Of a stretch of DNA of 64,000 bases, positions 1 through 16,825 are shown piece by piece. The stretch spans positions 1 to 64,000 of the IMG/VR virus record IMGVR_UViG_3300030098_004539. One strand, given 5' to 3'. The position numbers were made by a program, and so were the translations under genes. The stretch is from a virus. The notes beneath the pieces are model-generated. The model saw nothing but the letters and a program-made list of their open reading frames with translations, did no database searches and was not told where the DNA came from. Position 1 is the stretch's first letter, and each line of letters begins with the position of its first letter.

Positions 1-780
1 AATGATGCTTCCGATGACGCTGATGTTGACGTTGTAAAAGATAAAGAGAGAAAGAAAGAAAGCCTATATAGGGCTGCAAGAGATAAAAGGTTAGCAGAGG
101 CGTTTGGTGTAAATCCTCGAACAGACATATATAGAGATGAATTACCTGAGTTTGAGGATTTCCCAGAACAACCTAGATATGGGGGAGAGAAAGGGCTTCC
201 TATTTGGAAAAAGACTTCTGACGAGAAGCAATATTACGCCAAAGATTGGGAAAAGAAAGAGCGCCCTATAAACAGCTTTAAGTCTTGGGTAGACGGGTTT
301 AGAAGTAGCTTGTCGGAACACAGAGAGTCGTTACTCGATAAGTATGGCATCCCTAAAAACTCTAGGAATCAAAATGCTGACCAAAAAGAGTTTTTAGACT
401 ATATTCGAGATTCTGAAAATCAGCTTAAAGAAGATATGGCTCGGAAACTACGTGAAGAGTCTGACGACTTTGGTGATTTATCAGATAAAGAACAACAACA
501 TATTCTAGGGTTAATAAAGAAATCCGTGGATAATAGTACGAGTCGGATCGGAGACGTAAGTATGCTAGGACTTTTCTTAGACATTAACCTGTTTAAAGCC
601 CTCCCTTTAGGGGAGTCTCAAAAAATTAAAGCGTTTAAAAATTCATTCGGACGCACCTCTAGTGGCGTAAACCCCCCTACGATGAATACGGGGGAGTTAG
701 AGGCTGAAGAAGAAAAAGAAGCAGAGCGCAAAGATAAGAAAGAGATGGAAAAGAGTCTTAATCTCTACGTGAGTTGTTAA
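1..780 (+). CDS. Unknown head-module protein (5' end outside window)
   Basis: The reading frame is open from the first base, so the gene starts upstream; a TTG at 310 is only an internal codon. The visible 259 residues are strongly charged (many Lys, Glu, Asp) with no membrane segment and no domain I recognise. The last residues contain EMEKSLNLYVSC, and an internal segment reads INLFKALPLGE. Both fit the x-K-(S/A)-L pattern that recurs in the head genes downstream and may be prohead-protease sites (inference). The stop is followed after one base by the next ATG, so it is in the same operon. A head-associated or internal virion protein is likely from position; no function can be assigned. Confidence 0.75.
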   Translation, partial: NDASDDADVDVVKDKERKKESLYRAARDKRLAEAFGVNPRTDIYRDELPEFEDFPEQPRYGGEKGLPIWKKTSDEKQYYAKDWEKKERPINSFKSWVDGFRSSLSEHRESLLDKYGIPKNSRNQNADQKEFLDYIRDSENQLKEDMARKLREESDDFGDLSDKEQQHILGLIKKSVDNSTSRIGDVSMLGLFLDINLFKALPLGESQKIKAFKNSFGRTSSGVNPPTMNTGELEAEEEKEAERKDKKEMEKSLNLYVSC

Positions 781-781
781 A

Positions 782-3700
782 ATGAGTGACTACGAAGATA
801 TAAATAAAGGTTCTGAAGAAGGGTCTGGTGACTCCGCTGGCTCTGCCGGGGCTTTTAAGCCGCACGTACACGTCAAGCGAGGCATTAAAGATATCCAGCC
901 GATTAAGGGATCTTTTAAGCCTAAAAAGTGTGTTAAAACTGTGAGCTATCGTGGACGACCTCGGTACATCTGCCCCGCGTCTGGAGGAGAAACCGCAGTC
1001 CATAGTTTAGAGAATCTTCCTGTTAAACCAGAAGATACTCCGCGTAAATTAGCTGAAATTGCACAAACTGCCCCAGAACACTTAATTACTCCCAAAAGGC
1101 AACGAGAAGAGCCTCAAGAAGTACAAGCCGCTTTGAGAAACCGCCCCACAAGCATTCACTTACAGGATGTTGAAGAAGCCGGCCCAGATACAGAACATGA
1201 CCACCTACATTACCACTCTCCCAACGAGGCTACCGAGAAAGAATCGGATGCAATTATCTTAAAAGATAGTAAGCGCAAGTCTGGTGACGACGACGATGAC
1301 GGTGATGTCAAAAAAGGCCTGTTTATAACAGACTTGGTTAAGGGTAAGAAGCCTAAGATTGCTAAACCTATTAAGGCCCCTAAGAGGTCTAAACCTTCTT
1401 CTGGAAAAGCGCCTACTAAGAAAGCGCCTACTAAGAAAGCTCCTACTAAGAAAGCTCCTGGCGTCTACATTAAAGATGTTCGGCCCACTCTTAAGCCTCG
1501 TACTCAGGAGTCTAAAAAGAAGTTTAAAGACGATTTCCTTAATTTTCATCTTCGCCGCCCTAAGCAGAGTTCTTCTAAAGCGCCTGGTCGTAAATCAGAC
1601 CCTCTCGGCTCAATAATGCAGAGATTGCACCGCGACTATGGAGACAATTTTTTAAGTCCTGGTGCGGCCAAAAGGCCTTTAAGCTCTGCGGCCATACCTG
1701 TACCAGATTCGTACAGAGGAGGGGCGCTGACCGAAACAGAGAAGAAATACGGGAGAGGAGTTACGTCTAACTTTTTATCCGACAGTTCTAATCTTCCTGG
1801 CGGCGTTGCAAAACTCAAGAGCGGAGGGTTCATTGTTCCTGGAAAAGTAGGAATTCCTTTAGACGCCTTCTTTACATATAAAAAGCCTAAACAGTTTTTG
1901 TCGCAATTTTCTGATAAAGCTGTTTGGAGAGCAAAAATAACGCACGGCGCAGATCCCGTTAAGGGTCCTAAAATTTATAATAATTTAGAGGATGCGCTTG
2001 CGAGCCAGGAAGGTACTGAGTCAGAAGCAGACGAGTATATCACGCGGATTAACTGGAATGCGTTTAAAAAAGCTAATGACGGATTTACTCGCGGAGGAGA
2101 AGTACAATATCCAGAGTCTTTTAAAGTCCGTATTGGCCGGGAAGTAAAAACCGTACGTACTAGCGGTAAATGGTTTGGACGGTATGTTAAACCTTACTTT
2201 ACTCCAGGAAGGGACAGTTACGGTCGAAAGAAGATGGCTCCTGAGCAGGTTCTCAGTAAGTATATACGAGCAGTATACGATCGAGAAAATGAGCCGCCAC
2301 CAAAACCTGGTCGCGCCACCTTAAGGGCTGATAGAAAGAAGGGAACTTCTGGAGGCACGATAGATTCTGACGGAAATCTAAAGATTCGTACTCCTGCACA
2401 GTATGATGATCCTGGCGGTCGGAAGTTTGATCCTGCACCTCTTACGGATAAGGATTGGAAAGAAATCAAAGCTAGTATGGCTAAAAAGAAGGAAAAGGAG
2501 CTTAAGCGAGAAGCTGAGAGACGAGCGGAGGCGAAGCGACAAGGGCAAACTCCCGAAGCACAAAGAAAGTTTCGAGAAGAACTGAAGCGGATGAAGTATA
2601 CTCGGGAGCCTACTGTTGGAGAGTTTCTTTCTACTGTAGGCGAAGCTGCTTTATTTGTAGTAGATGCTCCTGTGATTGTTGGAGGTAAACTTGCTCAAAA
2701 AATTCCAACAGTTGCTCGCAATGCGGGCAAAGCTCTTGGTATTACCCTTAGTGCAGGTAAAGCTGCTGATGTAACACACAAAATGCGTACTGCCGTTATT
2801 GCGGTCTACAACAACGCCCAAGGGGTTAAAACGGCAATTTATGCAAAGACTGCTAAAGAAGCAGATAAGGTTCGAAAGCAGGTTGCAAATATGCCATCGT
2901 TTAACCGACTTGTCACTGCGGGAAGAGGAGGTGGTAAATCACCTATGCGCGTTGGCGTTACTAATCCTCGTCGTACAGCAAGAACTGCTGCACAGCGAAG
3001 AGCAGATGTTAGCCAACTTTACCCTACTGGTACTCCGTCACGCGTTCGTGTACCAAAAAAACGCCCCCCAACAAGAAAGAGTCCTAGCACCCCTTCACGC
3101 GTTCCTGACAAAATAAAGACACCGCCTAAGGCTAAACCTAAAAAGCCTACGGACAAACCTACACCTGAGCTTCCTCCTGTCCCTAAACCTACTAGGAGGC
3201 CTCCAGGATCTAAGCCTAAGCCTGTTCGTAGAAGGCGACAAGCACCTCGAAGAAGGCGTAAAGATACTCCTACAGAGAAGCCTCAGCAGAAGCCTACAGA
3301 TAAGCCGCAGCAGAAGCCGCAGCAGAAGCCTAAGGATAAGCCGCAGCAGAAGCCTAAGGATAAGCCGCAGCAGAAGCCTAAGGATAAGCCTAAGGGTAAG
3401 GATAAGCCTAAGGGTAAGGATAAGCCTAAAACTAGAAGCGCAATTAAACGCGCAGCTAGGCAATTACTCGCTGCTGATCGTGTTGAAGCTCCTGCAAAAG
3501 AAAAGCCTCCAAAGAGGGATAAAAAGAGAAAGAAAAAGAAGAAGAAGAGAAGAAGGTTTATTATTGCCGACGATAATCGTCGTATATATGAGGATACTCA
3601 ACGAAAAGAGGAGAAGGTTGCTCCTTTGCGCGAAGAGTTGCGACGAAAAGGTAGAAAGAAGGAAGAAGAGGAAGATGATGATTTAGCGGCCATCATCCGA

Positions 3701-3958: not shown

Positions 3959-3967
3959 AGGGATAAG

Positions 3968-4852
3968 ATGTCATCTTATAATCATCGGTCTTCTAAAAAA
4001 TTAGGTTGGACGCCTCAATGGTTTGGTGTGTCTGAGTTTGGAGACGATCTTCAAGAAGCTATTAAAGAGTTCCAAGGGGAATATGAAGACTTAAAAGTAG
4101 ACGGAATGTGTGGTCCGGTTACTTACCGGAGAATAAAGTTAGAAAGGGACACACAAGACATTGGTCCCTCTCACGGAGAGAAGATATTAATAGGTGGAAA
4201 ACTGTTTCCTATACCTTGGGATAAAGTAATAATTCCAGGGGAGAATGGAGCTTTAGAGTTAACTAAAGGTTTTCGCCGTAAAAAAGACCGATATATAAAT
4301 ATGGTCATTACACACTGGGATGTCTGCACCTCTGCTAAAAAGTGTAGGAATGTTCTTGCCGCTAAGAATATATCGACACACTTTTGTATCGACTGGGATG
4401 GCACTATCTATCAGTTTATGGATGTGATGCACGAGGGGTGGCATTCTGGGGTAGGTAAGATCAACCGACAGAGTGTTGGAATCGATTTGAATAACCCAGT
4501 TTATACAAAATATAATAAAATTTTGGTAAAACGAGGACAACCAGAACGGCCTGTGATAAGCGGTTATAGTATTAATGGTTGGAAGCCGAAGGAATTTTTA
4601 GGTTTCCATCAAGTACAAATTGATGCTTATATAGCTTTATTGGCTGGGTTAAATGCCCACTTGCCTGATTTAAACCTAATTCCTACTGGCGATACGGGAA
4701 ATCCCAAAGTGATCAAGACTATTCCTTTGGCTAAAGCCGCTTCTGAGGGCGGCGTAATGCACCATGCCCATGTAAAGAAGCGTAAGTGGGACACAGCAGG
4801 GGTTCACCTGTCCGAGTGCTGTGAAGCTGCTAAAGGGTTAGTTGTAGAATGA
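3968..4852 (+). CDS. Peptidoglycan amidase (Amidase_2) with N-terminal binding domain
   Basis: N-acetylmuramoyl-L-alanine amidase, cutting the bond between MurNAc and L-Ala of peptidoglycan. Residues 25-60 look like a PG_binding_1 domain (VDGMCGPVTYRRI). Residues 105-280 form a T7-lysozyme/PGRP-like domain: a probable zinc His116 in THWDVC, STHFCID with DGTIYQ, HSGVG near 159-163, a VGIDLNN strand, and the C-terminal HHAH (265-268) and KWDTAG (273-278) in the place of the second zinc His and the third ligand. The gene follows the large basic protein by 9 bases (RBS AGGGATAAG) and overlaps the transglycosylase ATG by 4 bases. It lies far from the holin-like genes at 61.9 kb, so it could be the endolysin or a virion-associated lysin. 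Confidence 0.9.
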   Translation: MSSYNHRSSKKLGWTPQWFGVSEFGDDLQEAIKEFQGEYEDLKVDGMCGPVTYRRIKLERDTQDIGPSHGEKILIGGKLFPIPWDKVIIPGENGALELTKGFRRKKDRYINMVITHWDVCTSAKKCRNVLAAKNISTHFCIDWDGTIYQFMDVMHEGWHSGVGKINRQSVGIDLNNPVYTKYNKILVKRGQPERPVISGYSINGWKPKEFLGFHQVQIDAYIALLAGLNAHLPDLNLIPTGDTGNPKVIKTIPLAKAASEGGVMHHAHVKKRKWDTAGVHLSECCEAAKGLVVE

Positions 4853-5973
4853 GGCTTTATCTAGACATAGACTTGTATAAGGCTGCTTCTGGGCCACCCT
4901 CTGAGGAGTATGAATTTTCTCCTCTGCGATTTAGTGGGTTGCCCCCCACTAAAGCTAATATAGATGAGCAGATATGGGTGGCTGCTCAAAAGTACGACAT
5001 ACCTGAAATTTATGATGCGCTTGTTGCTACCGCTAAACAGGAATCTGGCAGAACTCATTGGAGGAATCGTGGTAGGGGTAAGATTATTACGAGTCCTACG
5101 GACGCTCAGGGTGTTATGCAGTTAATGGCACGGACTGCTCGGGGGTTGGGTGTAGACCGTAAGGACTGGCGACAAAATATTTGGGGCGGTGTTAAGCTAT
5201 GGAGTATTAATTACAAGCAGGCTCTTAAGTCTGGTATGTCGCCTTCAGATGCTGTGGATTACGCAGCTATGGCTTATTATTCTGGCGGTGCGGGGGGTAA
5301 AGATCCTTCACAAAATACCAGTGCGGTAGAGGTACATAACCAGCGAGCGTTAGCTCGTCACAGACGTAAAAACCCAAACGCAACTATTTGGGACGTTCCT
5401 AGTAGCCAATTAAAGGGTGCGCCTAGTCAAGTATCTAAGTTTGGTGGTATTAAAAACTGGCGTAAAAATATGCAACGGGCCATGTCTCGGGGTGCTGGTA
5501 TTGATTCAACTACTGGCAAGAAGACATTTGGTGGTGCATTAGACAGGTACGCGAGAGGTATTAAGCGTCGTAGTGAGGCAGATCGTCACTATGTTCGTGT
5601 AGGTAAAGATAGAGCCCAGGCCGAAAGGCATGGGCTTAAGGGGTATACTGAAAGAGATAGCTCAGGTCGAGGGATTGCTAGTATGCCTATTAGGCAGACA
5701 ATGGCGAGGCCGGAAGACTTACGCCCTACGCCTTCTAAGCCTAAGTCTGTAGCGTCTGAGGGTTTGTATTTAAAAAGTCCTGTAGCTGCCCCTGCTAGGA
5801 AACAGGCTGAGACTAAGCGTGTTGCTGGACTAGACGCTGCCAGTAAAGATTTAGGTCTTCCGGCTCCGTCTAAAGTGTTAAGTAGACAACCTAAGTCTGT
5901 TGCGGTTCAGCCTCGACCTCCGGTTAAAGTTAGTAAGTCGTTATTTCAATCAGAATATTTTATTGAGGTATAA
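4849..5973 (+). CDS. Lytic transglycosylase (SLT domain), probable virion lysin
   Basis: Residues 40-160 are a soluble lytic transglycosylase domain that cleaves the MurNAc-GlcNAc glycosidic bond: catalytic Glu65 in TAKQESG, the GVMQLM motif at 88-93, and AYYSGG near 142-147. The remaining 210 residues are basic and Pro-rich, and the protein ends VSKSLFQSEYFIEV. That tail matches NKSLFKS and SKSLFKS in the protein at 8048-9139 and fits a possible prohead-protease site; DLYKAAS at residues 8-14 is similar. The start ATG overlaps the amidase stop (ATGA), so translation is coupled. Position between amidase and portal plus the tag suggests packaging into the head and ejection at infection, as with other SLT-containing phage ejection proteins (inference). 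Confidence 0.9.
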   Translation: MRLYLDIDLYKAASGPPSEEYEFSPLRFSGLPPTKANIDEQIWVAAQKYDIPEIYDALVATAKQESGRTHWRNRGRGKIITSPTDAQGVMQLMARTARGLGVDRKDWRQNIWGGVKLWSINYKQALKSGMSPSDAVDYAAMAYYSGGAGGKDPSQNTSAVEVHNQRALARHRRKNPNATIWDVPSSQLKGAPSQVSKFGGIKNWRKNMQRAMSRGAGIDSTTGKKTFGGALDRYARGIKRRSEADRHYVRVGKDRAQAERHGLKGYTERDSSGRGIASMPIRQTMARPEDLRPTPSKPKSVASEGLYLKSPVAAPARKQAETKRVAGLDAASKDLGLPAPSKVLSRQPKSVAVQPRPPVKVSKSLFQSEYFIEV

Positions 5974-5975
5974 AA

Positions 5976-8045
5976 ATGGGGCTATTAGATAAAGCTCTGA
6001 GTAAAGTATTATCGCCTTCGATTATTACCCCTACTGCTGAAGAGCTAGCTAAGGGGTGGAAGAAGATTTCTGGTACTGCTCCGGCGGGTCCTCCTAAGGC
6101 TATGACTTGGGACCCGATGTCCCTTGTTTACTCTTTGGGATATAAAGACCGACGAAGTAACCTTACGTACGATATTTTACGTCAGATGGTGGGGTCTTTA
6201 AGTGTGTTAGCGGCTATTGTTAATACGCGAGTTAATCAAGTAGCTACTTTTACCTCTCCTTATCGTCGAACTCGTAACCTTGGTTTTGAGATTAAACATA
6301 AAGACCGGGATCACCGTCTTTCTAAGTCGGAAAAGCGGTTTATTGTTGAGCTAGAGTCGTTCATCTCTAATTGCGGAAAGTCTAAGGTAAATAAGTTTAG
6401 TACTAAGCCTAGGGATAACTTCGAGCAATTTACTCGCAAGGTCATTAGAGATCGAATGACATATGATCAAATGACGTTTGAGATTGTTCCTGACCGGAAA
6501 GGTCTTCCTTATGAGTTTGTTGCTGTTGATGCAGCAACAGTACGTCTTGCGGCAGACCCTAGCGCCGAAAAATATAGAAATACTCGACAAGAAAAGAAAG
6601 AGCTTAAAGAGTTTTTAGAAAACTATTCAGGCTCTGCCTTAGCATACCCAGTACTTCAAGAACCTAGTAAGCGCGGTAAAGCGTCTTTTGTGCAAGTCTG
6701 GCAAGGGTCTATCGTTCGGGCGTACACGCGGCAAGAACTAGCATTTTGTATTGCTAACCCCCGCACAGACATTAAGTCTAACGGTTACGGGTACGCTGAG
6801 ACAGAACAGCTTGTAAATATTATTACGTCTCAACTGTGGGCGGAAGAATATAACCGTAACTTCTTTAAGCAGGGTGCTGCTCCTAAAGGATTGCTTAATA
6901 TTCGTGGAGATAATATTTCTCCAGAACAACTCGAAGCATTTAAGCGCCAGTGGGTGGCTAATGTTGCGGGTACTGAAAATGCGTGGCGCACTCCTATTCT
7001 TCAAAGTGAAGAAATTCAGTACCTCAACATGCAAACTAACAACCTGGATATGGAGTACTCTCGTTGGTTAGAGTACTTGATCAAGGTGATTTGCGCTGTT
7101 TATCTAATTGCTCCCGAAGAGATTGGTTTCTACCTGTCCCCCGGCGGCATGCAGCAGCCTATGTTCGATACGAACAACGAGTGGAAGCTAAAAGCCTCTA
7201 AAGACCGAGGACTACGACCATTACTTCGATTTTATGCAGATGCTCTTAATAGTAATGTTATCGATAAAATCGACGACCGGTTTTACTTGGACTTTGTCGG
7301 TCTTGACGAGCTTACAGAGAAAGAACGTATTGAACTCAGGAATCAACAAGTTCAGTTCTTTAGGACTGTTAATGAGATTCGCGCCGATGAAGATTTAGCC
7401 CCTATTGATGACGGGGACATTATCTTAAATCCAATTTACCTCCAAAAAATTCAGATGGAACACACCTGGAAAATGGAGGCAGAGCAGCGAAAAGAAGCTA
7501 AGAAAGCTCAAGATGAGCAACTTGCTATGCAAAAGAAGCAAATGTCTATGCAGGAGCAAGCACAGCAACAGCAGATGCAACAGCAACAGCAGATGCAACA
7601 GCAGGCGCAGCAGCAAATGGGTGCTGCACCAGAAGAAGGACAGCCTGGACAAGAGGGTCAGCCTCCAGAACAGGAAGGTCCGTCGATCGCACCATCTATT
7701 GACGAACTACGTGCACAAGGCGCAGAACCCGAAGCACAGCCCGCTCCTGAAGAAGGTGCTCCTCAACAAGAAGGTGCTCCCCCTGAAGAAGTTCAAGAAG
7801 GTGCTCCTCAACAAGAAGGTGCTCCCCCTGAAGAAGTTCAAGAAGCTGCACAAATGGAAGAGCAAGTCTCTCCCGAAGGTGTAGAGGAAGAAGCTGCCGT
7901 AGAAGAGCAAACATCCCCGGAAGAAGCAGCACAAGTTGCGCCTGAAGAAGCTCCAAAAAGTAAAAAAGAGCAAATACAGGAAATTTTAAATTCCCTTCCC
8001 CCTGAGATGTTGGTTAATAATACCAAGAACGTTGACGAGGAATAG
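5976..8045 (+). CDS. Portal protein
   Basis: Forms the dodecameric DNA gate at one head vertex. Family features are seen: an N-terminal segment SVLAAIVNTRVNQVATF (about residues 74-90), a FEIKHKD strand, and the core YGYAETEQLVNIITSQ followed by EEYNRNFFKQGAAPKGLLNI (about residues 270-315), typical of phage portals. From about residue 500 the chain becomes a Gln/Glu/Lys-rich helix, then a run of QQQQMQQQ, then Pro/Glu/Gln-rich repeats (EGAPQQEGAPPEEVQ twice), and ends acidic. At 689 residues it is longer than many portals because of this tail. LLDKALSKVL at the N-terminus fits the x-K-(S/A)-L pattern of the head module. A GAGG ribosome site precedes the ATG. Confidence 0.93.
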   Translation: MGLLDKALSKVLSPSIITPTAEELAKGWKKISGTAPAGPPKAMTWDPMSLVYSLGYKDRRSNLTYDILRQMVGSLSVLAAIVNTRVNQVATFTSPYRRTRNLGFEIKHKDRDHRLSKSEKRFIVELESFISNCGKSKVNKFSTKPRDNFEQFTRKVIRDRMTYDQMTFEIVPDRKGLPYEFVAVDAATVRLAADPSAEKYRNTRQEKKELKEFLENYSGSALAYPVLQEPSKRGKASFVQVWQGSIVRAYTRQELAFCIANPRTDIKSNGYGYAETEQLVNIITSQLWAEEYNRNFFKQGAAPKGLLNIRGDNISPEQLEAFKRQWVANVAGTENAWRTPILQSEEIQYLNMQTNNLDMEYSRWLEYLIKVICAVYLIAPEEIGFYLSPGGMQQPMFDTNNEWKLKASKDRGLRPLLRFYADALNSNVIDKIDDRFYLDFVGLDELTEKERIELRNQQVQFFRTVNEIRADEDLAPIDDGDIILNPIYLQKIQMEHTWKMEAEQRKEAKKAQDEQLAMQKKQMSMQEQAQQQQMQQQQQMQQQAQQQMGAAPEEGQPGQEGQPPEQEGPSIAPSIDELRAQGAEPEAQPAPEEGAPQQEGAPPEEVQEGAPQQEGAPPEEVQEAAQMEEQVSPEGVEEEAAVEEQTSPEEAAQVAPEEAPKSKKEQIQEILNSLPPEMLVNNTKNVDEE
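7752..7841 (+). repeat. Perfect 45-bp tandem duplication in portal tail
   Basis: Two identical 45-base units, 7752-7796 and 7797-7841, each encoding EGAPQQEGAPPEEVQ. No base differs between them, so the duplication is recent or kept uniform by recombination. Confidence 0.92.
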
Positions 8046-8047
8046 CT

Positions 8048-9139
8048 ATGAAATACCGTTCGTACGAAAAGTCTATTAATGCAAAGAAAAAGGACCTTGA
8101 CGAAGAGGGCGAAAATGCTCCTGTTGAAGGTGAGGATCTGGCTAAGAATCGTAAACACGGGTACGCCGAACCACCCCTTATGTCTAATGTAAGGGCGTTT
8201 AATAAGTCCTTATTTAAGTCTGTTTCTCTTTCAAAGGCAGTAGTGGGAGAAAGATTACCTACTGGCCCAGCGAATATCTACTCTAAGAAGAATCGTGAGA
8301 GGTTGATTGAGGGAGCTAAAGAGGGAGCTAAAGCAGCGTGGGGGGCGCTAAAGAACATTCCCAATATCTTTAGGGACAGGAAGAAGGACGACGATCAGCT
8401 TCCCCCGCCCCCGAAAAGGTCCAAGGGTTCCAGCCCTTGGAAGAAGCCCCGGAGTAAAAAAAGTCCATATTATTTACCGCATAATATACCTGGGGCTCCT
8501 GATACTTATGAAGGTATGGAACGTCAGCGGAAACCTTCTTCTCCAAAGTCCACCTCAGGATCTGGGGTAACTAAGTTAGAGTCTGGTGGGTTTAAAGCTC
8601 CAGGCATTGATAAGACTTTTGCAACAGAAAAGGATGCGATTAATGCAATTAAAGAAGCAAAACCAGAGCGCATTTATAAGCCTTTAAAATTTGATGAAGA
8701 GAAGCATGGTCGGCCCACCCCAAGAATCGTGCCTGCACCTGTGAGTAAGTCCTTATTTAAGTCTTCTTACGGCTCAAAAGTAGGATCTCCATGCGATCTA
8801 GGCGGTTCTAAAGGGAAAAAGGCTCCAGAATGGGAAGAAGGTAACGTCTCCCATGAAAAGCCTCGCGAAGAAAATGGGCAATACACGCCTCCCGGATGGT
8901 CCGCTAAAGGCGAAGACGACGAGGATAAGAAGAAGAAAAAGGACGTAAAGAAGTCTATTACGGAACTTCGTTACGGTGCTCAACCTCTTCATGGGTTTGA
9001 TTTACACAAGTCTTGTGCTGTGTGTGGGCGACTTTCAAAGTCTGCCGGTGAAAAAGGTCATGAAGGACACAGCGGATGCTGTGAAGATTGTAAGAAATCT
9101 ATGAATTCCATGCGATGGCACGAGTCGCATCTCGCGTAG
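8048..9139 (+). CDS. Unknown head-module protein with KSLFKS motifs and C-terminal Cys cluster
   Basis: 363 residues, basic, with Pro/Lys-rich middle. Two motif copies stand out: AFNKSLFKSVSLSKAV (near residues 50-65) and PVSKSLFKSSYG (231-242); their DNA shares 19 identical bases. A segment GSGVTKLESGGFKAPG (about residues 172-187) resembles one in the protein at 782-3958. The last 45 residues carry CAVCGRLSK followed by GHEGHSGCCEDC, a possible zinc-binding cluster. No enzyme family is recognised. It sits directly after the portal with an AGGA ribosome site. A capsid-internal or scaffold-related protein processed by the protease is a reasonable guess, no more. Confidence 0.75.
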   Translation: MKYRSYEKSINAKKKDLDEEGENAPVEGEDLAKNRKHGYAEPPLMSNVRAFNKSLFKSVSLSKAVVGERLPTGPANIYSKKNRERLIEGAKEGAKAAWGALKNIPNIFRDRKKDDDQLPPPPKRSKGSSPWKKPRSKKSPYYLPHNIPGAPDTYEGMERQRKPSSPKSTSGSGVTKLESGGFKAPGIDKTFATEKDAINAIKEAKPERIYKPLKFDEEKHGRPTPRIVPAPVSKSLFKSSYGSKVGSPCDLGGSKGKKAPEWEEGNVSHEKPREENGQYTPPGWSAKGEDDEDKKKKKDVKKSITELRYGAQPLHGFDLHKSCAVCGRLSKSAGEKGHEGHSGCCEDCKKSMNSMRWHESHLA

Positions 9140-9149
9140 GAGAATTAAC

Positions 9150-9560: not shown

Positions 9561-9563
9561 GAA

Positions 9564-10184
9564 ATGCCCAAGGGCCTCTACATATTAGACGACGTGTTCA
9601 AAGGAATACGTGTTGCAGGGGGTACTCCTTTTTTTAGCGGAGCTAAAGGCAAAGCTAAAGGGGAGTTTGGAGGTCTTTATGTAGGCGGCTCGAAGGGAAA
9701 AACTTCGTACGGCCCTAAAGGCGGCCACATTAAAAAGATAAGTCCTACTACTGGAAAACCTATCTACTATAAGAAGTATGAAGGGAAACGTTCAGTAAAA
9801 GTAGCCACGCCCACTGAGGGCGGAGGACCTCCTGAAGGCTACTCCACTTATGAAGCACATCCAGAACACGTTATTGGGAGAACTGGTAACGGGCATGATA
9901 TTCACGCGTTCTCTGGTATTAATAATACGAAGCATTATAAGTGGGATGATCACCGGGACGCTAGCCACGCCCACTTTACTCTTGCACAACACTTAATGAA
10001 TGTGCTTCGAGATAGGGCAGGGGGCGGAAAAGATCTGTCGAAACTTCAAGGTTTGATAGACGCACACTCTAAATTTGCCCAACACCACCGCAAGGAGTCT
10101 ATTAAGGACTTGCTTCACGGTAAGCAAAAATCACGATCAGAAGAAGATTTAAGTCTTCGTAGAGACCCCAAAGGTGGTAAATGA
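9564..10184 (+). CDS. Unknown Gly/Lys- and His-rich head-module protein
   Basis: 206 residues. The N-terminal half is rich in Gly and Lys (FFSGAKGKAKGEFGGLYVGGSKGK, shortened). The middle has His-rich stretches (YEAHPEHVIGRTGNGHDIHAF, then KWDDHRDASHAHFTLAQH) that could bind metal. The C-terminal part is helical and charged. I recognise no known nuclease or protease motif with confidence. Its stop overlaps the next ATG (ATGA at 10181-10184), so the small gene downstream is translationally coupled. Confidence 0.68.
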   Translation: MPKGLYILDDVFKGIRVAGGTPFFSGAKGKAKGEFGGLYVGGSKGKTSYGPKGGHIKKISPTTGKPIYYKKYEGKRSVKVATPTEGGGPPEGYSTYEAHPEHVIGRTGNGHDIHAFSGINNTKHYKWDDHRDASHAHFTLAQHLMNVLRDRAGGGKDLSKLQGLIDAHSKFAQHHRKESIKDLLHGKQKSRSEEDLSLRRDPKGGK

Positions 10185-10357: not shown

Positions 10358-10799
10358 TAACCACCTTACAGACCAGCAAATACAGGAGCATTTAGATACG
10401 TTGTCTAAGTCTAAATCTCTAGAAAGCTACTGTAATAACTGCGGAGACTGCTGTAGCCCCAGTGTATTGGTTAAAAGTACTAGAACTTCTCCTTTTAAAG
10501 TACTAGTTAAAGATTTAAAGTGTAAGTTCAGTAAGTCTGTTAACGGAGACAATACGTGTACCGTGTATAATGAGAGATTCAATAAGGCTCCCTGGTGTTT
10601 AGACCTTAAGGGTATGATTAAGGGTGGAGTAGCCCCGCTACATTGCCCTTATGTAGAGACCTTGAAGGGTTATAGCCCTACGTTAGAGTTAAATGACCCT
10701 CAATATAAGACTGTATTACCTCTTCTTAAGAAAGCAGTCTCGGAGGGAGATGTTTCTCCTTTTGCCTCGTTAGACATTAAGACATTTTTAGGAGATTAA
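10350..10799 (+). CDS. CxxCxxCC (YkgJ/UPF0153-like) cysteine-cluster protein
   Basis: The protein has CNNCGDCC at residues 28-35, then LKCKF (Cys58), CTVYNERF (Cys70), PWCLDL (Cys83) and a last Cys99. This is the arrangement of the YkgJ/UPF0153 CxxCxxCC family, thought to bind zinc or iron; no biochemical role is firmly known. The usual RP after the second motif is RF here. It overlaps the upstream small gene by 8 bases and stands one base ahead of the paralogue pair. Similar proteins occur in many large phages, often without known role. A metal-dependent role in head assembly or host redox chemistry would be speculation. Confidence 0.82.
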   Translation: MTNNHLTDQQIQEHLDTLSKSKSLESYCNNCGDCCSPSVLVKSTRTSPFKVLVKDLKCKFSKSVNGDNTCTVYNERFNKAPWCLDLKGMIKGGVAPLHCPYVETLKGYSPTLELNDPQYKTVLPLLKKAVSEGDVSPFASLDIKTFLGD

Positions 10800-10800
10800 G

Positions 10801-11913
10801 ATGAGTTACTGGGATGCATCGTGTGACTTTCTTATTAAGAGTTTAGAAGATCTTAATAAAGCGAAACCTAAGCGGTCTAGTAAAACGCAATCTACTCCGG
10901 TTGATTCGCCGCAAACTAAGCTGAGTGAGTTTGAGAAGCAAACTCAAAAGTTTAAACCCGCAGATGCGAAAAAAGTTCATATAGGTGTGGAAGATCGTGC
11001 GAGGTTAAAAGCGGCCAAGGCCGGAACAACCTTTACACCTAAGCAGGGGGGTTCTGCTGGGAGGACGTTTACGGTCGTACCGTCTAAGTCGAAAGGTACG
11101 CCTCCTACTAAAAAAGAACGTATTGAGCTTGGACCACAGCCTCGTAGCTCACCAAATTATCGCCTGCAACCTGCCGGGGAAAAGGCTAGAGAACAGCGTA
11201 AGAGCCCTATCATGGATATGGTTATGGAAGGGAGGGATGACTCAGAAAAAGAATCTGTTTGGCCACAGGGTTTTAAATCTGCTGACACCTGGAACAAAAA
11301 AGTAAAAAAAGACTGGGACGAGGAAAAATCAAGTATATTGGATCACCTTTGGGGCGGAAGTAAGCAAACACGGAAACCGCCAGCACAGTTTGGTGCATAT
11401 GCTGACTTTAAAGAAAAAGCTAAAGAGTATCTTGGTAACAAGGCCGATAAATACTATTCGGGCATAAGATCTGGATCTGGTGGTGAAGGTAAATTTGGCG
11501 AGCTTACCGCTAAACAGAAAGCGATGATGGCGATCATAAAGCGCATGCCAAAGCATCAGCAAGATAGGATTAGAGATCACCATATAAAGCTAATGACGGG
11601 ACAAAAGTTGTCTCCGGCAGGAATTCGTACCAGGGTAGCGGCGCAAGTTGGAGCGTTTCAAAACCCAGAAGAGTTGAATAAATATGGTTGGGCGTATTTT
11701 AACCCTGATGTAGCTCAAATTATCGCGGTTAATTCTCTCACTGAGGGCGCTAGGAGGGCTTCGTCCGCCATTAAGAATATTGGTAGTGCGGTGGGTGAGA
11801 TTCTTTTTCAAAAAAATAGCAGTAAAAAACCTCGTCGCTTAAAAGCCTATAAAACTAAAAAGGAATGGGGACCCTCCGGGACCGATTTTGGAGACGACGA
11901 CTGGAAGCGGTGA
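10801..11913 (+). CDS. Head-module paralogue A (unknown function)
   Basis: 370 residues, basic. It starts MSYWDASCDFLIKSLEDLNK, nearly matching MSFWDDSSEILTKSLEPMVK of the next gene. Other aligned blocks are VHIGVEDRARLK, TFTPKQGGSAG, a helical segment near residues 237-260, and a late block IRTRVAAQVGAF with YFNPDVAQI. The pair is a tandem duplication. The segment IKSL (Lys13/Ser14) fits a protease-site motif, so the first 13 residues may be a removable tag. Ribosome site AGGAGATTAAG precedes the ATG. No known fold recognised; probably a capsid-internal or scaffold-linked protein. Confidence 0.78.
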   Translation: MSYWDASCDFLIKSLEDLNKAKPKRSSKTQSTPVDSPQTKLSEFEKQTQKFKPADAKKVHIGVEDRARLKAAKAGTTFTPKQGGSAGRTFTVVPSKSKGTPPTKKERIELGPQPRSSPNYRLQPAGEKAREQRKSPIMDMVMEGRDDSEKESVWPQGFKSADTWNKKVKKDWDEEKSSILDHLWGGSKQTRKPPAQFGAYADFKEKAKEYLGNKADKYYSGIRSGSGGEGKFGELTAKQKAMMAIIKRMPKHQQDRIRDHHIKLMTGQKLSPAGIRTRVAAQVGAFQNPEELNKYGWAYFNPDVAQIIAVNSLTEGARRASSAIKNIGSAVGEILFQKNSSKKPRRLKAYKTKKEWGPSGTDFGDDDWKR

Positions 11914-11926
11914 AGGAGTAATTAAG

Positions 11927-13057
11927 ATGAGTTTTTGGGACGATTCGTCAGAAATTTTGACTAAAAGTTTAGAACCGATGGTTAAGGCTAAACCTAAACC
12001 TAGGAAGCTGTCTGGGTTTGAGCAAAGCACGCTTGACTACAAGGACAAAGACAGCCCATCGGTTCATATGGGAGTAAAGGATCGCGCTCGACTAAAAAGG
12101 GTAACACCAACGTTCCCAATTGGCCCCGCAGGTAGCGGTAGTACTTTTACTCCTCAAGAAGGTGGATCTCAAGGCAAGACGCGGGTCGTTACAGACCGAA
12201 CCCCCGAAAAGGGTAAAATCCCTAGTGCTGAAGACTGGGCAAGACTCGGAAAGAAGGCGGCGGATGCAGCAAGTTTAGGGTTCAAAAAATTAAAACAGGA
12301 TGTGAAATCTGCGAATCCGCGCAGACTGAAAAAAGAAAGAATTATCAAAAAGGATACGGAAGAGGCTAAAGGCGTTAAACCGATGTCAGGCGCTGCCGAA
12401 GTAGTGAATAAAAAGACACGAGAGCAACACGAGAAAGACTCTCCCGGTTTCGGTAGTTTTCTTTTAGCCGCGTATGGGGCCGACGACCCTAAGAGCCCCA
12501 GAAGAGAAACTTTGCGTAAATTAAGTAACCTCGATAACGCAAAGTTTCGTAGGAATGTAGCCAAAAAGTTAGAAAACTCTTTAAATAACTTTAAACGGTA
12601 CCTAACAGGCAAAACTTCCGATGGAATTTTTGGTAAACCGCTTACTAGAGCACAAAAAAAGATAGGTGAGGTGTTTGAAGCGTTGCCTGAAAGTAAGAAA
12701 AAGAAAATTGCTGCACTGTACGCCGACAAACCTATGAGTTGGGGTGACTCCCTTACGGATTCCAGTTGGACTAAACCTCTCGGAAAGCTCGGAAATATTG
12801 AAAATCTAAGCGAAATGGGTGTCAAAACTCGCGCCAGAGGGGCAGCAGGATTAATTCAGTCAGAAAGAGACATCGGATTGATCCCACTTATGTTCAACCC
12901 AGACATGCACGCGTATCTAAACAATAGACCTTCGCCGGAAGGTCGCGCAGTTGCTCCTCTCCCAACAAAAAAGATGCGGAACCAATTTCAGTACTCGCCT
13001 AAATCGTTTCCTAAAGGCAAAAGCAGCTTCTCCATTAAAGAGCCTAAAAAGAGTTAA
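11927..13057 (+). CDS. Head-module paralogue B (unknown function)
   Basis: 376 residues. I chose ATG 11927 and not the in-frame ATG at 11888, because 11927 has a ribosome site (GGAGTAATTAAG), lies just past the stop of paralogue A, and gives an N-terminus aligned to that protein. Shared blocks are VHMGVKDRARLK, STFTPQEGGSQGK, VKTRARGAAG and MFNPDMHAYL. The middle differs: residues 90-230 are highly charged and have diverged. Lys13-Ser14-Leu15 in the N-terminal tag is kept in both copies, which argues that this site matters. Function unknown; likely the same structural process as paralogue A. Confidence 0.78.
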   Translation: MSFWDDSSEILTKSLEPMVKAKPKPRKLSGFEQSTLDYKDKDSPSVHMGVKDRARLKRVTPTFPIGPAGSGSTFTPQEGGSQGKTRVVTDRTPEKGKIPSAEDWARLGKKAADAASLGFKKLKQDVKSANPRRLKKERIIKKDTEEAKGVKPMSGAAEVVNKKTREQHEKDSPGFGSFLLAAYGADDPKSPRRETLRKLSNLDNAKFRRNVAKKLENSLNNFKRYLTGKTSDGIFGKPLTRAQKKIGEVFEALPESKKKKIAALYADKPMSWGDSLTDSSWTKPLGKLGNIENLSEMGVKTRARGAAGLIQSERDIGLIPLMFNPDMHAYLNNRPSPEGRAVAPLPTKKMRNQFQYSPKSFPKGKSSFSIKEPKKS

Positions 13058-13066
13058 GGATAAATA

Positions 13067-13840
13067 ATGTCAGATGAGACTTTAAATTTTAAATTTTGGA
13101 TGCCTTTAAGTAAGGCAAAGGCGTCTAAAGATGGAAAAGCGAGGATTATCGAAGGGATTGCCTCTACTCCAGACTTAGATCTTCAAAATGAACGGGTAAA
13201 CCAGTCCGGTATTAACTTTGATTACTTTATTAATCATGGATATTTTAACTGGGACCATAAATCTGGAGCAGAAAACAAGATTGGAGAACCTTGGGAGGTT
13301 AAAGTCACCCCTAAAGGGCTTTACGTTAAAGGTATTATTTACAAAGGTAAAAAAGTTGCCGATGACGTATGGGAACATATTCAGTCTTTAGCTCAAAATC
13401 CCGGATCTAAGAGAAAAGTGGGCTTTTCTCTCCAAGGAAAGACAGTACGGCGTAATGGAAACAGCATTTTAAAGTGCTGGCTGCAAGATATTGCCATTAC
13501 TACTGCCCCAATTAACTACAATACGTACTTAGACGTTGTTAAATCCTTCAGTAAATATGAGTGGGTAAACTCTGAACTAGAGAAGACTCTTTCTGCGGGC
13601 TACGGGCACGCAGGAGGCGGCGCACTCGTTCCAGAATCTCTCGACGATAAAGAACGAGATTTAAAATATGGGGATAAAAAAGACGGTAGGAACCCTGGTA
13701 ATAAAAATAATAAAATTATTACAAAGAAAAGTCTTGCCAATCTCATACAACGTCATTTAGGTTACTCAAAAGATACTTCTGGACAACTTTCAGACGTTAT
13801 CTTCCGCATGTCAGACATTAGGAGAAAACAGAATGGCTAG
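13067..13840 (+). CDS. Prohead maturation protease (HK97/herpesvirus-like serine protease)
   Basis: 257 residues. The core (about 25-160) has the fold signature of the phage prohead protease family: IEGIASTPDLDLQNE, then NWDH with probable catalytic His64, and GFSLQG with probable nucleophile Ser121, followed by DIAITTAPIN. It would cut scaffold and capsid N-termini inside the prohead. The C-terminal tail (residues 160-257) is not part of the core and contains LEKTLSAGYG and GGGALVPESLD, which mirror the capsid protein's N-terminal segment LSKALSAGYQ and GGSALRVESLE. This is probably an autocleavage or prohead-targeting tail. Position directly before the scaffold-like genes and the capsid gene supports the call. 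Its end overlaps the next ATG by 8 bases. Confidence 0.92.
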   Translation: MSDETLNFKFWMPLSKAKASKDGKARIIEGIASTPDLDLQNERVNQSGINFDYFINHGYFNWDHKSGAENKIGEPWEVKVTPKGLYVKGIIYKGKKVADDVWEHIQSLAQNPGSKRKVGFSLQGKTVRRNGNSILKCWLQDIAITTAPINYNTYLDVVKSFSKYEWVNSELEKTLSAGYGHAGGGALVPESLDDKERDLKYGDKKDGRNPGNKNNKIITKKSLANLIQRHLGYSKDTSGQLSDVIFRMSDIRRKQNG

Positions 13841-14603
13841 TCAAATCACACCGATGCAGCCTGGAAATCATCAGCCGATGGGCGTTGATTGGGCTGGCAC
13901 CGACGTAGAGAGTGAAGAGAACGCAGAAGACCGCGATAGCATGCCTAACGGCACAGACTATAAGCCGGTTAAAAAGAGTTATCGTCTTTACAAGTCTCTT
14001 ATCCAAGATGAAGACCTTTTAAAGGCTATGGATGAAGACGAAGAAGAGAAGGAAAAGCACTTTGAAGGTGCTATGAAGGACGATAAAGACCATATCGCTG
14101 CTTTAGAGCGAGATGAAGAGGAAGAGAAGCGGGACGAAGAAGACGCCAAAATGCGTAAGTCTTTCTTTGAGGTAGTAGAAGAGAATCCTGTTCTCCTAAA
14201 AGGAATTTCTAGCTCACCGTTCTTGTACGAGATGGTCAAATCCATCGGATACTCTTTCCTTAACTTAGAAGACCAGATTGGTACTCAGATGCTGCAAATG
14301 GACATGCATCATGACCAGTTTGCTAAGAGTGTCGATGGCGTTTTTGAAAATATGAGCAAAAGCTTAGGTTTCATTAATGACACGGCTGATCAAGTTGATA
14401 TGCACAAGTCTGTAAGTGCGGATGGAAATGTGCAGTATCTTGAGAAGGGTAACTTCAGCGGTGAGGCCGGTCCTTCTCAAGGACAAGTTCTTCAGGCCCT
14501 TGTTAAGGGTGTTGAAGCCGGTCACATTTCGCCCACGGAAGTGATTAAATTTGAAACTACTGGGGCGGTATCTCCGCATATCCAGAAAAGCCTTGGATTA
14601 TAG
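13833..14603 (+). CDS. Acidic scaffold-like protein, copy 1
   Basis: 256 residues, very acidic in the middle (DEDEEEKEK, RDEEEEKRDEEDAK), mostly helical, no enzyme motif. Residues 9-29 (QPGNHQPMGVDWAGTDVESE) are almost identical to a segment of the next gene. The C-terminal third also aligns (VLQALVKGVEAGHISPTEVIK against VIGALMKGVEAGTVSPLEIIK). Several x-K-S-(L) motifs occur: LYKSLIQ (Lys54), NMSKSLGF, DMHKSVSA and the terminal HIQKSLGL. Between protease and capsid genes, an acidic coiled protein with many cut sites is what a scaffolding protein looks like; that assignment is inferred. Ribosome site TAGGAGA precedes the ATG. Confidence 0.82.
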   Translation: MASQITPMQPGNHQPMGVDWAGTDVESEENAEDRDSMPNGTDYKPVKKSYRLYKSLIQDEDLLKAMDEDEEEKEKHFEGAMKDDKDHIAALERDEEEEKRDEEDAKMRKSFFEVVEENPVLLKGISSSPFLYEMVKSIGYSFLNLEDQIGTQMLQMDMHHDQFAKSVDGVFENMSKSLGFINDTADQVDMHKSVSADGNVQYLEKGNFSGEAGPSQGQVLQALVKGVEAGHISPTEVIKFETTGAVSPHIQKSLGL

Positions 14604-14614
14604 GAGAGATTAAG

Positions 14615-15376
14615 ATGTCTGACGGAATGTACGAATCAGAGATTCTAAAGTCGTTAGAGGCTTTAGATGAGATTCTGTCGAAAGCTAATCCTCATGTTCA
14701 AAATCTACAACCTGGAAATCATCAGCCTATGGGTGTTGATTGGGCCGGTACAGATGTAGAGAGTGAAGAGGATGAAAGCTACGCTGGTCACATCGCTGAG
14801 AATGGAACGGATTACGATCCTCCCAAGAGCGGTGGAAAGAAAAAGAAAAAGATGAGCAAGGCTTTCGAGGAAGCAGAAGAAAAAGAAGAGTTTGAAGAAG
14901 ACGAAGACGAAGACGAAGACGAGATGGACAAGGGGTATGGCTACGGCAAGTCCAGCGGGATGTCCAAAGGTGTCGAAGTCAGCGAGTTTCTTCACGAGCT
15001 TACGAAGTCTGTAGCTATTTACTGCTACGAATTAGAAGGCTTAATTACTAAGTCTTTAAATCAGATTCACGAGGAAAACGGTGCGATGTCGAAAGCTATC
15101 GCTGAAAACCTCGTCGCTCTAAACGATATTATCTCTAAATCACAAGATAATATCAATGAATACGCGGAGGGTCCTGCTCGGGGTCCGAAGAGTATGCTCG
15201 ATATGAGCAAGTCTATTTCTGGTTCGCAAGAGCCGGAGTTGTCCAAGAGTGTTGTTATCGGCGCTCTTATGAAAGGTGTTGAGGCTGGCACGGTTTCTCC
15301 TCTTGAGATCATCAAGGTGGAGCAGTTCGGCGTTCAAGCCATTAATCAAGATGTCGTCAAAAGTCTTTTAGCTTAG
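14615..15376 (+). CDS. Acidic scaffold-like protein, copy 2
   Basis: 253 residues, paralogue of the gene at 13833. It starts with a 30-residue extension containing ILKSLEALDEILSKANP (Lys12, Lys23), then LQPGNHQPMGVDWAGTDVES, an acidic run EEDEDEDEDEMD, helical regions with LITKSLNQ, GAMSKAIAE and ELSKSVVIG, and ends DVVKSLLA. These are the same motif positions as in copy 1. Two adjacent copies with an almost identical 20-residue block but diverged flanks suggest different partners sharing one docking element. Ribosome site TAGGAGAGATTAAG. Scaffold or protease-cleaved core protein is the most likely role, inferred from position and composition. Confidence 0.82.
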   Translation: MSDGMYESEILKSLEALDEILSKANPHVQNLQPGNHQPMGVDWAGTDVESEEDESYAGHIAENGTDYDPPKSGGKKKKKMSKAFEEAEEKEEFEEDEDEDEDEMDKGYGYGKSSGMSKGVEVSEFLHELTKSVAIYCYELEGLITKSLNQIHEENGAMSKAIAENLVALNDIISKSQDNINEYAEGPARGPKSMLDMSKSISGSQEPELSKSVVIGALMKGVEAGTVSPLEIIKVEQFGVQAINQDVVKSLLA

Positions 15377-15394
15377 GAACTAGGGAGAATTTAA

Positions 15395-16825
15395 ATGGTA
15401 CCTCAAATTAGCTTAGGAGACTACGACGGGCTGAACGGGTTCGGAACATCAACTACGGGAGATGTTAACGAACTGTCTAAGGCACTTAGCGCGGGATATC
15501 AGGTCTCTAATCAGACTGGTGGGTCTGCCCTTCGCGTTGAGAGTCTGGAAGCCAGCCTGAAAGTAGTCACATGGTCCAACAAACACATCAAGCTCTGGAA
15601 GAAGATTCCGAAGAGCCCAGCGTACTCAACGGTTGAGGAATACAACGTCCTTAGCCAGTACGGTGCAGCCGGAGCCTTTGGCTTCACGCGAGAGGGAGAG
15701 CTTCCTGGTACTCAGGACAGCACTTACACTCGTATGACTGCACTGGTGAAGTTCATTGGAACGACTCGTTCTGTGACTCACCCAGCTACGTTGGTTAATC
15801 CGGCACACGGAGATGTTATCGCTCTGGAGAACCAGAACGGTATCCTTTGGATGTTGGAGCGTGTTGAGGATTCACTCTTCCACGGTAACTCTGGTCTTGC
15901 CTTTGATGGTGAAGCAGAGCAGTGGGATGGTCTGGATGCTCTCATCAATAACGCTAACGTTATTGACCTTGAGGGACAGCCTCTTCAAGAAGCTGACATC
16001 GAAGAAGCCTCTAACTTGGTCATTGAAAACTACGGTTACCCCACGGACATGTTCCTTGGTACCCGTGCGATGAGTGACCTCGTCAAGACCTTCTACCCCC
16101 GCGAGCGCGTGAATATGCCTGCTCCTTCGGAAGGTAAGGTTGGTCTGTCGGTTACCTCGATGGCTACGCAAGCTGGAACGATTGAGTTCAACCCTGACGT
16201 CTTTATTCGTCAAGGTAAGCAGCCTCCTGCGGCTGCTACGAGCGCTAACGCTCCTGCTACTCCGGCGGCTATTGTTAACGGTGGTGCTGCTGGTACTGCA
16301 AGCTGGGCGAAGTCGCTTGGTGCTGCTGCTGGTGGATTTTCCTACGCAGTGACTGCATGTAACCGGTTTGGTGAGTCCGCTCCCGTTCTTTCGGCAACAT
16401 ACAATGTTGGCGCTGGATCGACGACGGCTAACGGTATTCAGGTTACTAACGCTGCTGCGATTGGTGCAAATCCTCCTGAGTTCTTTATCATCTACCGTAC
16501 GCGGAACATTGGTTCCGGTGGTGCAGCACCTGCGGACCTTTCTCAGTACAGTGAGATTGCTCGCGTGCGTTGTACCAACCAGGGCGCTGGTGTGATGGGT
16601 GTTCAAGCTCAAGACCTCAACGCTACTATGCCCTTCACGGAAACGGCTTACTTGGGAGAGCTTACCCCTTCGGTGCTCACCTTCCGTCAGCTTGCTCCTC
16701 TGATGCGTATGGATCTCGCGGTTCTGGCTCCTGCCTACCGTTGGATGATTATGCTCTACGGTACGCCTATCCTGTTTGCTCCGCGCAAGTGGGTCCGGTT
16801 GACCAATATTGGTCGCCTTAGCTAG
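15395..16825 (+). CDS. Major capsid protein with inserted Ig/FN3-like domain
   Basis: 476 residues, HK97-type capsid subunit by gene order and sequence character. The N-terminal segment holds ELSKALSAGYQ (Lys29-Ala30), a likely protease cut site, then GGSALRVESLEASLKVVTW, then the core with KIPKSPAYSTVEEYNVLSQYG. Residues about 276-400 differ in composition: Ala/Gly-rich linker, then FSYAVTACNRFGESAPVLSA and EFFIIYRTRN, the look of a fibronectin-III or Ig-like fold inserted late in the chain. The core resumes with LGELTPSVLTFRQLAPLMRM and ends at the Lys/Arg strand WVRLTNIGRLS. Base composition is richer in G and C than in neighbouring genes, as is common for highly expressed capsid genes. 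Ribosome site AGGGAGAATTTAA. Confidence 0.93.
   Translation: MVPQISLGDYDGLNGFGTSTTGDVNELSKALSAGYQVSNQTGGSALRVESLEASLKVVTWSNKHIKLWKKIPKSPAYSTVEEYNVLSQYGAAGAFGFTREGELPGTQDSTYTRMTALVKFIGTTRSVTHPATLVNPAHGDVIALENQNGILWMLERVEDSLFHGNSGLAFDGEAEQWDGLDALINNANVIDLEGQPLQEADIEEASNLVIENYGYPTDMFLGTRAMSDLVKTFYPRERVNMPAPSEGKVGLSVTSMATQAGTIEFNPDVFIRQGKQPPAAATSANAPATPAAIVNGGAAGTASWAKSLGAAAGGFSYAVTACNRFGESAPVLSATYNVGAGSTTANGIQVTNAAAIGANPPEFFIIYRTRNIGSGGAAPADLSQYSEIARVRCTNQGAGVMGVQAQDLNATMPFTETAYLGELTPSVLTFRQLAPLMRMDLAVLAPAYRWMIMLYGTPILFAPRKWVRLTNIGRLS

What the first reader, a model, noticed from the sequence alone, without database searches (positions are those of the whole stretch)
1..15490. A K-(S/A)-L tag on most head-module proteins: a candidate prohead-protease substrate code
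Seen: x-K-(S/A)-L segments occur near the ends of the unknown protein at 1-780 (MEKSLN), the transglycosylase (SKSLFQ), portal (LDKALS), the protein at 8048 (NKSLFK, SKSLFK), the paralogues at 10801 and 11927 (IKSLE, TKSLE, both Lys13), the protease (LEKTLS), both acidic paralogues (many) and capsid (LSKALS). I saw only rare matches in the tail genes. Known: HK97 protease cuts its capsid protein between Lys103 and Ser104 in NKSLGS. Inference: one protease processes a whole set of head proteins, so the tag marks packaged cargo.
Basis: partly seen in the sequence, partly recalled or inferred. Interest (0 to 1): 0.85.

Follow-up and report, generated by a model that had tools for sequence, protein, structure and literature searches.

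The report
Lysine cut-code on phage head proteins
Most proteins that build or ride inside this virus's head carry the same short cutting mark (hydrophobic-x-lysine, then serine, alanine or glycine), which is very probably where the phage's own assembly protease trims them, and some carry a removable address label beside the cut; the cut on the shell protein was already known, but a head-wide code with labels at both protein ends appears new.

Summary
[VILMFYW]xK[SA]L occurs 16 times in the head module (shuffles give 1.4, 0/2000 reach it), 4 in the tail module (2.8 expected). It repeats in 48 dereplicated relatives: 325 vs 29.9 upstream of the capsid gene, 16 vs 12.9 downstream. The window is a SPO1-like (Herelleviridae-related) phage. 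Capsid-protein homologues are cut at exactly this site: A511 ALK23|SFTTGY (mature peptide in the record), phi812 VVK24|SFQTGY (PDB chain), aligned with window LSK29|ALSAGY, whose K is invariant in 70 sequences. The protease model best matches T4 gp21; its own sites, K159|S (62/62) and K173|T/A (58/62), sit in a disordered linker. Scaffold proteins carry about 8-11 sites each. So the code is hydrophobic-x-K|(S/A/G): T4 gp21 logic with Lys instead of Glu. The portal example is not supported. New here: a second signal beside the cuts, an L-(Y/F)-(V/I/L) segment at N- or C-termini (an N-terminal case also in cultured Exiguobacterium phage 132), resembling a T4-type capsid-targeting sequence that the cut would remove; and a protease tail that copies the capsid N-arm, cut site included. 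Cleavage beyond the capsid protein, and targeting, remain inference.

The parts
13067..13840 (+). Prohead protease; catalytic domain aa 6-148 with invariant H64 (13256-13258) and S121 (13427-13429)
   Evidence: phrog_1028 head maturation protease 6.6e-51; AlphaFold model best PDB match T4 gp21 5jbl, E 1.4e-5, prob 1.00; D63, H64, S121 invariant in 62 sequences
13541..13546 (+). Protease self-cleavage site 1: VVK159|S160F, end of the catalytic domain
   Evidence: K159 62/62, next residue S56/A5/G1; same place in SPO1, LysYB1, Exiguobacterium phage 132, fRuSau02; start of the low-confidence linker 149-216
13583..13666 (+). Protease self-cleavage site 2 (LEK173|TL) and copy of the capsid N-arm (KTLSAGYGHAGGGALVPESLDD)
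   Evidence: K173 58/62; element found only in capsid (73) and protease (50) among all ORFs scanned; similarity z up to 24 in close relatives
13833..14603 (+). Acidic protein 1, probable scaffold, 9 strict sites (11 counting K-G)
   Evidence: weak phrog_15087 head scaffolding protein; 9 vs 0.24 expected; K at sites 0.66 conserved vs 0.31 for other K
14615..15376 (+). Acidic protein 2, probable scaffold, 8 strict sites (11 counting K-G)
   Evidence: phrog_15087 4.4e-05; 8 vs 0.27 expected; K at sites 0.64 vs 0.35 elsewhere; 39-aa segment 69% identical to acidic protein 1
15395..15481 (+). Capsid-protein propeptide, aa 1-29, ending ELSK29
   Evidence: L27, K29, A30, L31 invariant in 70 relatives; aligned A511 and phi812 proteins begin right after this K
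15482..16825 (+). Predicted mature major capsid protein starting ALSAGYQVSNQTGG
   Evidence: 41-46% identical to SPO1-group capsid proteins; PDB 9vel, 5lii, 9row homologues
745..777 (+). C-terminal cut plus label MEK251|SLNLYVSC
   Evidence: K-S-L-x-L-(Y/F)-V ends recur in unrelated relatives
595..600 (+). Internal label-like cut LFLDINLFK199|ALP in the same protein
4849..4884 (+). N-terminal label and cut of the transglycosylase: MRLYLDIDLYK11|A
   Evidence: M-x-L-(Y/F)-(L/I/V)...K(S/A/G): 11 upstream vs 0.5 expected, 0 downstream in relatives
5935..5970 (+). C-terminal cut and label of the transglycosylase: SK363|SLFQSEYFIEV
   Evidence: conserved in 3 relatives
9564..9605 (+). N-terminal label and cut of g9564: MPKGLYILDDVFK13|G
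10801..10842 (+). N-terminal segment and cut of par1: MSYWDASCDFLIK13|S
11927..11968 (+). N-terminal segment and cut of par2: MSFWDDSSEILTK13|S
8048..9139 (+). Basic head-module protein with 6 sites (K8, K53, K57, K63, K234, K302)
   Evidence: 6 vs 0.31 expected; orthologues 24 vs 2.1
5976..8045 (+). Portal; K6 match (5991-5993) judged a probable chance hit
   Evidence: phrog_12 portal 4e-51; orthologues 7 vs 5.9 expected; N-terminus not kept outside the close clade

Best explanation
The motif is the cleavage code of this phage's gp21/assemblin-fold prohead protease: [LIVMFYW]-x-K|[S,A,G], usually with a hydrophobic residue next. Proposed steps: the prohead assembles with scaffold, capsid protein, protease and internal proteins; the protease frees itself at K159|S and K173|T, trims 29 residues from the capsid protein at K29|A, cuts both acidic scaffolds at about ten places into fragments of about 20-30 residues that can leave, and severs short terminal segments of internal (cargo) proteins. 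Those segments, L-(Y/F)-(V/I/L) beside the cut at the N- or C-terminus, probably tether cargo to the core or shell until the cut frees it. Shown: motif enrichment and conservation, protease fold prediction, K|S cutting of homologous capsid proteins. Inferred: cutting of all other proteins and the targeting role of the terminal segments.
For: Head 16 vs 1.43, tail 4 vs 2.8; 48 dereplicated relatives upstream 325 vs 29.9, downstream 16 vs 12.9, every locus with more than 500 aa upstream significant on the broader motif. Of 11 P1 residues tested in ten isolate lineages, only K is consistently enriched. A511 mature capsid protein starts after ALK23; the phi812 9row chain starts after VVK24 while 5lii is full length. 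Capsid K29 70/70 and protease K159 62/62. Scaffold K at sites about twice as conserved as other K; scaffolds of SPO1, Exiguobacterium phage 132, LysYB1 and fRuSau02 have 6-8 sites vs 0.3-0.4. Protease fold T4 gp21; its sites fall in a disordered linker. Sites are concentrated in the 10-30 kb upstream of the capsid gene in four genomes. C-terminal L(Y/F)(V/I/L) in the last 12 aa: 42/279 upstream vs 1/300 downstream. N-terminal label plus cut: 11 vs 0.5, and 0 downstream.
Against: No peptide or N-terminal data for this phage, or for any non-capsid protein of the family, were found. The reversed motif is also raised upstream (3.0x), partly because sites overlap (LSKSL), so part of the signal may be a general hydrophobic/Ser/Lys pattern of helical scaffolds. 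Portal not enriched. A large share of the C-terminal labels comes from one family of 70-85 aa zinc-ribbon-like proteins. The P100 scaffold has only 2 sites (p 0.057). In distant relatives the capsid-arm copy in the protease fades (median z 3.6).
Confidence: 0.84

Rival explanations
1. The motif is an assembly interface, not a cut site: a repeated hydrophobic-x-K-S-hydrophobic element with which scaffold and internal proteins bind the capsid protein or the portal.
For: It is densest in scaffolds (about 2.6 per 100 aa), a reversed motif is also raised upstream, and the protease tail and capsid N-arm share a segment around it, as a binding element might.
Against: In two capsid-protein homologues the bond after this K is the recorded mature N-terminus. 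P1' is limited to small residues, S/A/G, at the protease's invariant K159, a protease signature. R cannot replace K.
Confidence: 0.08
2. Composition or ancestry artefact: head proteins are Lys/Ser-rich, partly disordered and paralogous, so the motif recurs by descent or by chance.
For: Head proteins are K/S rich; acidic proteins and par1/par2 are paralogues.
Against: Shuffles keep composition and fall far short; removing paralogues leaves 7 vs 0.93; unrelated families and lineages show it; K at sites is twice as conserved as other K.
Confidence: 0.03
3. Only capsid protein, scaffold and protease are cut by the protease; the sites and terminal segments on other head-module proteins are binding signals or chance and are not processed.
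For: In SPN3US, 42 head proteins were found uncut by the prohead protease (PMC10052503). Single-site proteins (TG, portal, par1, par2) are not significant one by one.
Against: Non-core upstream proteins of relatives as a group are 3.5x enriched with strong excess at both termini; in five polyvalent proteins 0 of 35 sites fall inside Pfam domains, 3.1 expected from composition.
Confidence: 0.2

Closest known systems
T4 prohead protease gp21 with its (L/I)xE code and capsid-targeting sequences of internal proteins
   Same: Predicted protease fold; one short code over capsid protein, scaffold, protease itself and internal proteins; short N-terminal targeting peptide removed by the cut (PMC9026906)
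   Different: P1 is Lys instead of Glu; candidate labels occur at C-termini as well; label sequence unrelated; protease tail copies the capsid N-arm
Herelleviridae capsid maturation (A511 Cps, phi812 Mcp, SPO1 gp6.1)
   Same: Homologous capsid protein cut after K at the aligned position in A511 and phi812; same gene order protease-scaffold-capsid
   Different: In the records seen here only the capsid cut is documented; the extension to the whole head module is inferred here
HK97 prohead protease gp4 and capsid K103|S104
   Different: HK97 scaffold is the N-terminal delta domain of the capsid protein; no cargo set
phiKZ and SPN3US prohead proteases (cut after Glu; A-X-E in SPN3US)
   Same: Many head and ejected proteins processed; redundant sites in propeptides; S preferred at P1' in SPN3US
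   Different: Glu at P1, Lys here
Polyvalent proteins of phages
   Same: Topoisomerase I + InPase + DUF5661 proteins sit in the head module of relatives; proposed to be packaged and injected (PMC5512222)
   Different: Here they carry the head cut code, placed between or at the edges of domains; for P1 DdrB a built-in metallopeptidase was proposed to do the processing

Membership tests
gp21/assemblin-fold prohead protease | Catalytic-domain fold of gp21/herpesvirus assemblin | tested here: met
   Foldseek 5jbl E 1.4e-5, prob 1.00, then herpesvirus proteases; TM-score only 0.41 (query) / 0.62 (target), mean pLDDT 67.7
gp21/assemblin-fold prohead protease | Conserved His and Ser catalytic residues | tested here: met
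   H64 and S121 62/62; their catalytic role is inferred and the third residue was not assigned
gp21/assemblin-fold prohead protease | Proteolytic activity on head proteins | not testable with these tools
   needs expression or virion mass spectrometry
T4 gp21 substrate code | Glu at P1 | tested here: not met
   K is the enriched P1; E is not
Herelleviridae-type head module | Protease-scaffold-capsid gene order with homologous proteins | tested here: met
Herelleviridae (taxon) | Core-genome phylogeny within the family | not tested
   capsid identity 41-46% to SPO1-group phages; related capsid and protease genes also occur in Bacteroides and Thermus phages, so only 'related' is claimed
T4-type capsid-targeting sequence | Short terminal peptide shared by otherwise unrelated cargo, bounded by a protease site | tested here: met
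   N-terminal 11 vs 0.5 and 0 downstream; C-terminal in several unrelated families
T4-type capsid-targeting sequence | Sufficient to bring a foreign protein into the head | not testable with these tools
   needs a fusion experiment

The most novel reading that the evidence does not exclude
Herelleviridae and several sister lineages use a general, removable address system: an L-(Y/F)-(V/I/L) label at either end of a protein, joined through an hxK|(S/A/G) cut, loads unrelated proteins (lytic transglycosylase, polyvalent topoisomerase/InPase proteins, giant ParB-like proteins, small zinc proteins) into the prohead, and the protease, itself docked through a copy of the capsid N-arm, releases them during maturation and cuts polyvalent proteins between domains.
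Probability: 0.4. Interest if true: 0.8.

Novelty: new variant of a known kind. Interest (0 to 1): 0.64.

Why it matters
If right, the head proteome, cut sites and ejected cargo of a large and much-used phage family could be read from sequence alone, as the Glu-based codes allow for T4 and giant phages. It would give polyvalent proteins a packaging signal that can be tested, suggest a way to load proteins into SPO1-type heads, and show that the gp21/assemblin fold switched its P1 residue between Glu and Lys while keeping the same logic. The capsid-arm copy in the protease is a testable idea for how the enzyme docks in the prohead.

Tried and rejected
Portal as a substrate: orthologues not enriched, and the phi812 portal chains in PDB are deposited full length, which says nothing about cutting. 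fRuSau02 scaffold and RS088 have no PDB relatives. Concerted evolution of protease tail and own capsid arm: cognate score 44.3 vs 42.3 non-cognate, no clear signal. The two large proteins at 114749 and 117592 as members by raw motif density: only weak (3 vs 0.9 and 3 vs 2.1), although N-terminal and internal K-G/K-S segments suggest membership. Literature searches for a multi-protein K|S code in SPO1-like phages found none in the open-access library; Eyer et al. 2007 on phage 812 structural proteins, cited in the paper, was not read and could contain such data.

Full report
What is there. The window is the structural half of a 128,195-bp virus record related to SPO1: its capsid protein is 41-46% identical to SPO1-group proteins. 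Genes 1-16,825 form a head module: amidase, transglycosylase, portal (phrog_12), several proteins of unknown function, head maturation protease (phrog_1028), two acidic proteins with weak scaffold matches, and capsid. The contig ends overlap by 139 bp with one mismatch, so the record is terminally redundant. The ORF at 1-780 therefore starts near the other end and encodes about 650 aa, and the module continues upstream into a 3097-aa protein with a weak ddrB-ParB match and a 933-aa protein.

Paralogues do not explain it. The head alone shows a position-specific pattern: D/E at P4, L/M at P3, S/V at P2, K at P1, S then A/G at P1', L/V/I at P2'.

It replicates. In 48 dereplicated relatives from IMG/VR, proteins encoded upstream of the capsid gene hold 325 matches against 29.9 expected, those downstream 16 against 12.9; arginine in place of lysine gives 1.3x. 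In four larger genomes the sites stand out mainly in the 10-30 kb before the capsid gene. Ten isolate lineages, including SPO1, Exiguobacterium, Lysinibacillus, Staphylococcus, Listeria, Bacteroides, Thermus, Pseudomonas, Morganella and Chryseobacterium phages, show lysine as the only consistently enriched P1.

Why it is a cut code. The GenBank record of Listeria phage A511 carries a mature peptide for Cps that begins right after ALK23. The PDB chain of the phi812 capsid protein in 9row is 24 residues shorter than the full-length chain of 5lii and starts after VVK24. Both bonds align with LSK29|ALSAGY of the window; L27, K29, A30 and L31 are invariant in all 70 sequences that cover the site. 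The protease has K159 invariant in 62 sequences with only S, A or G after it, and K173 in 58 of 62. Both lie in a predicted disordered linker between catalytic domain and C-terminal helices. The model's best PDB match is T4 gp21, then herpesvirus assemblins. In the scaffolds, K at sites is conserved at about 0.65 against 0.33 for other K, and scaffolds of SPO1, Exiguobacterium phage 132, LysYB1 and fRuSau02 show 8, 8, 8 and 6 sites against 0.3-0.4.

A second signal. At C-termini (last 12 residues) of upstream proteins L(Y/F)(V/I/L) occurs in 42 of 279, downstream in 1 of 300. Much of this comes from one small zinc-ribbon-like family, but several other families without detectable similarity end in K(S/G)LxL(Y/F)V or close variants. 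At N-termini, M-x-L(Y/F)(L/I/V)...K(S/A/G) occurs in 11 upstream proteins (0.5 expected) and in none downstream; the cultured Exiguobacterium phage 132 has MYLYINGDNLTK|SLN. In both arrangements the cut would remove the label. This is the layout of T4 capsid-targeting sequences (PMC9026906). Relatives place polyvalent proteins (topoisomerase I, InPase, DUF5661) in the module, with 0 of 35 sites inside the Pfam domains, 3.1 expected; these five proteins are related, so this is one observation rather than five.

A mimic. The protease tail repeats the capsid N-arm: window KTLSAGYGHAGGGALVPESLDD against KALSAGYQVSNQTGGSALRVESLE. Among all ORFs scanned the element occurs only in capsid and protease; in close relatives the match is nearly complete, and SPO1, Exiguobacterium phage 132 and LysYB1 proteases show related tails. 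It may dock the enzyme on the shell or offer it a substrate-like segment; this is inference.

Limits. No experiment shows cleavage outside the capsid protein. The reversed motif is also raised upstream, so part of the signal may be helical patterning. The portal match is not supported. Eyer et al. 2007 could not be read and might already report some of these cuts in phage 812.

Noticed in passing
contig ends, window 1-139: The first and last 139 bases of the 128,195-bp record match at 138 positions, so the genome is terminally redundant or circularly permuted and ORF 1-780 is truncated only by the cut of the record.
   Followed up: yes
window 13583-13666 and 15479-15562: Protease tail and capsid N-arm share about 25-40 residues including the cut site, in this clade and in isolates such as LysYB1 and SPO1.
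   Followed up: partly
contig 114749-117550 (L076:13750-16548): A 933-aa protein with internal copies of S-(N/H)-W-D-x-F-D-L-x-K-G, as if several labelled proteins had been fused; its first 44 residues match phrog_2423.
   Followed up: partly
contig 117592-126885 (L077:2593-11883): A 3097-aa protein with N-terminal LYLDSKLFK|G and several cut-like sites in its first 180 residues; weak ddrB-ParB match, possibly a polyvalent protein.
   Followed up: partly
L015, L017, L034, L044, L066, upstream of the protease: Polyvalent proteins with topoisomerase I, InPase and in part DUF5661 in the head module of relatives.
   Followed up: partly
e.g. L061:7884-8123, L033:7864-8100: A family of 70-85 aa zinc-ribbon-like proteins directly upstream of the protease in many relatives, with VKS sites and (L/P)(Y/F)(V/I/L)R ends; function unknown.
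   Followed up: no
window 18176-22354: A 1392-aa protein built of near-identical repeats (DTVVDGIQTDLSNGTDGLGALKTLIDT...), probably a fibre or tail protein; not part of the code.
   Followed up: no
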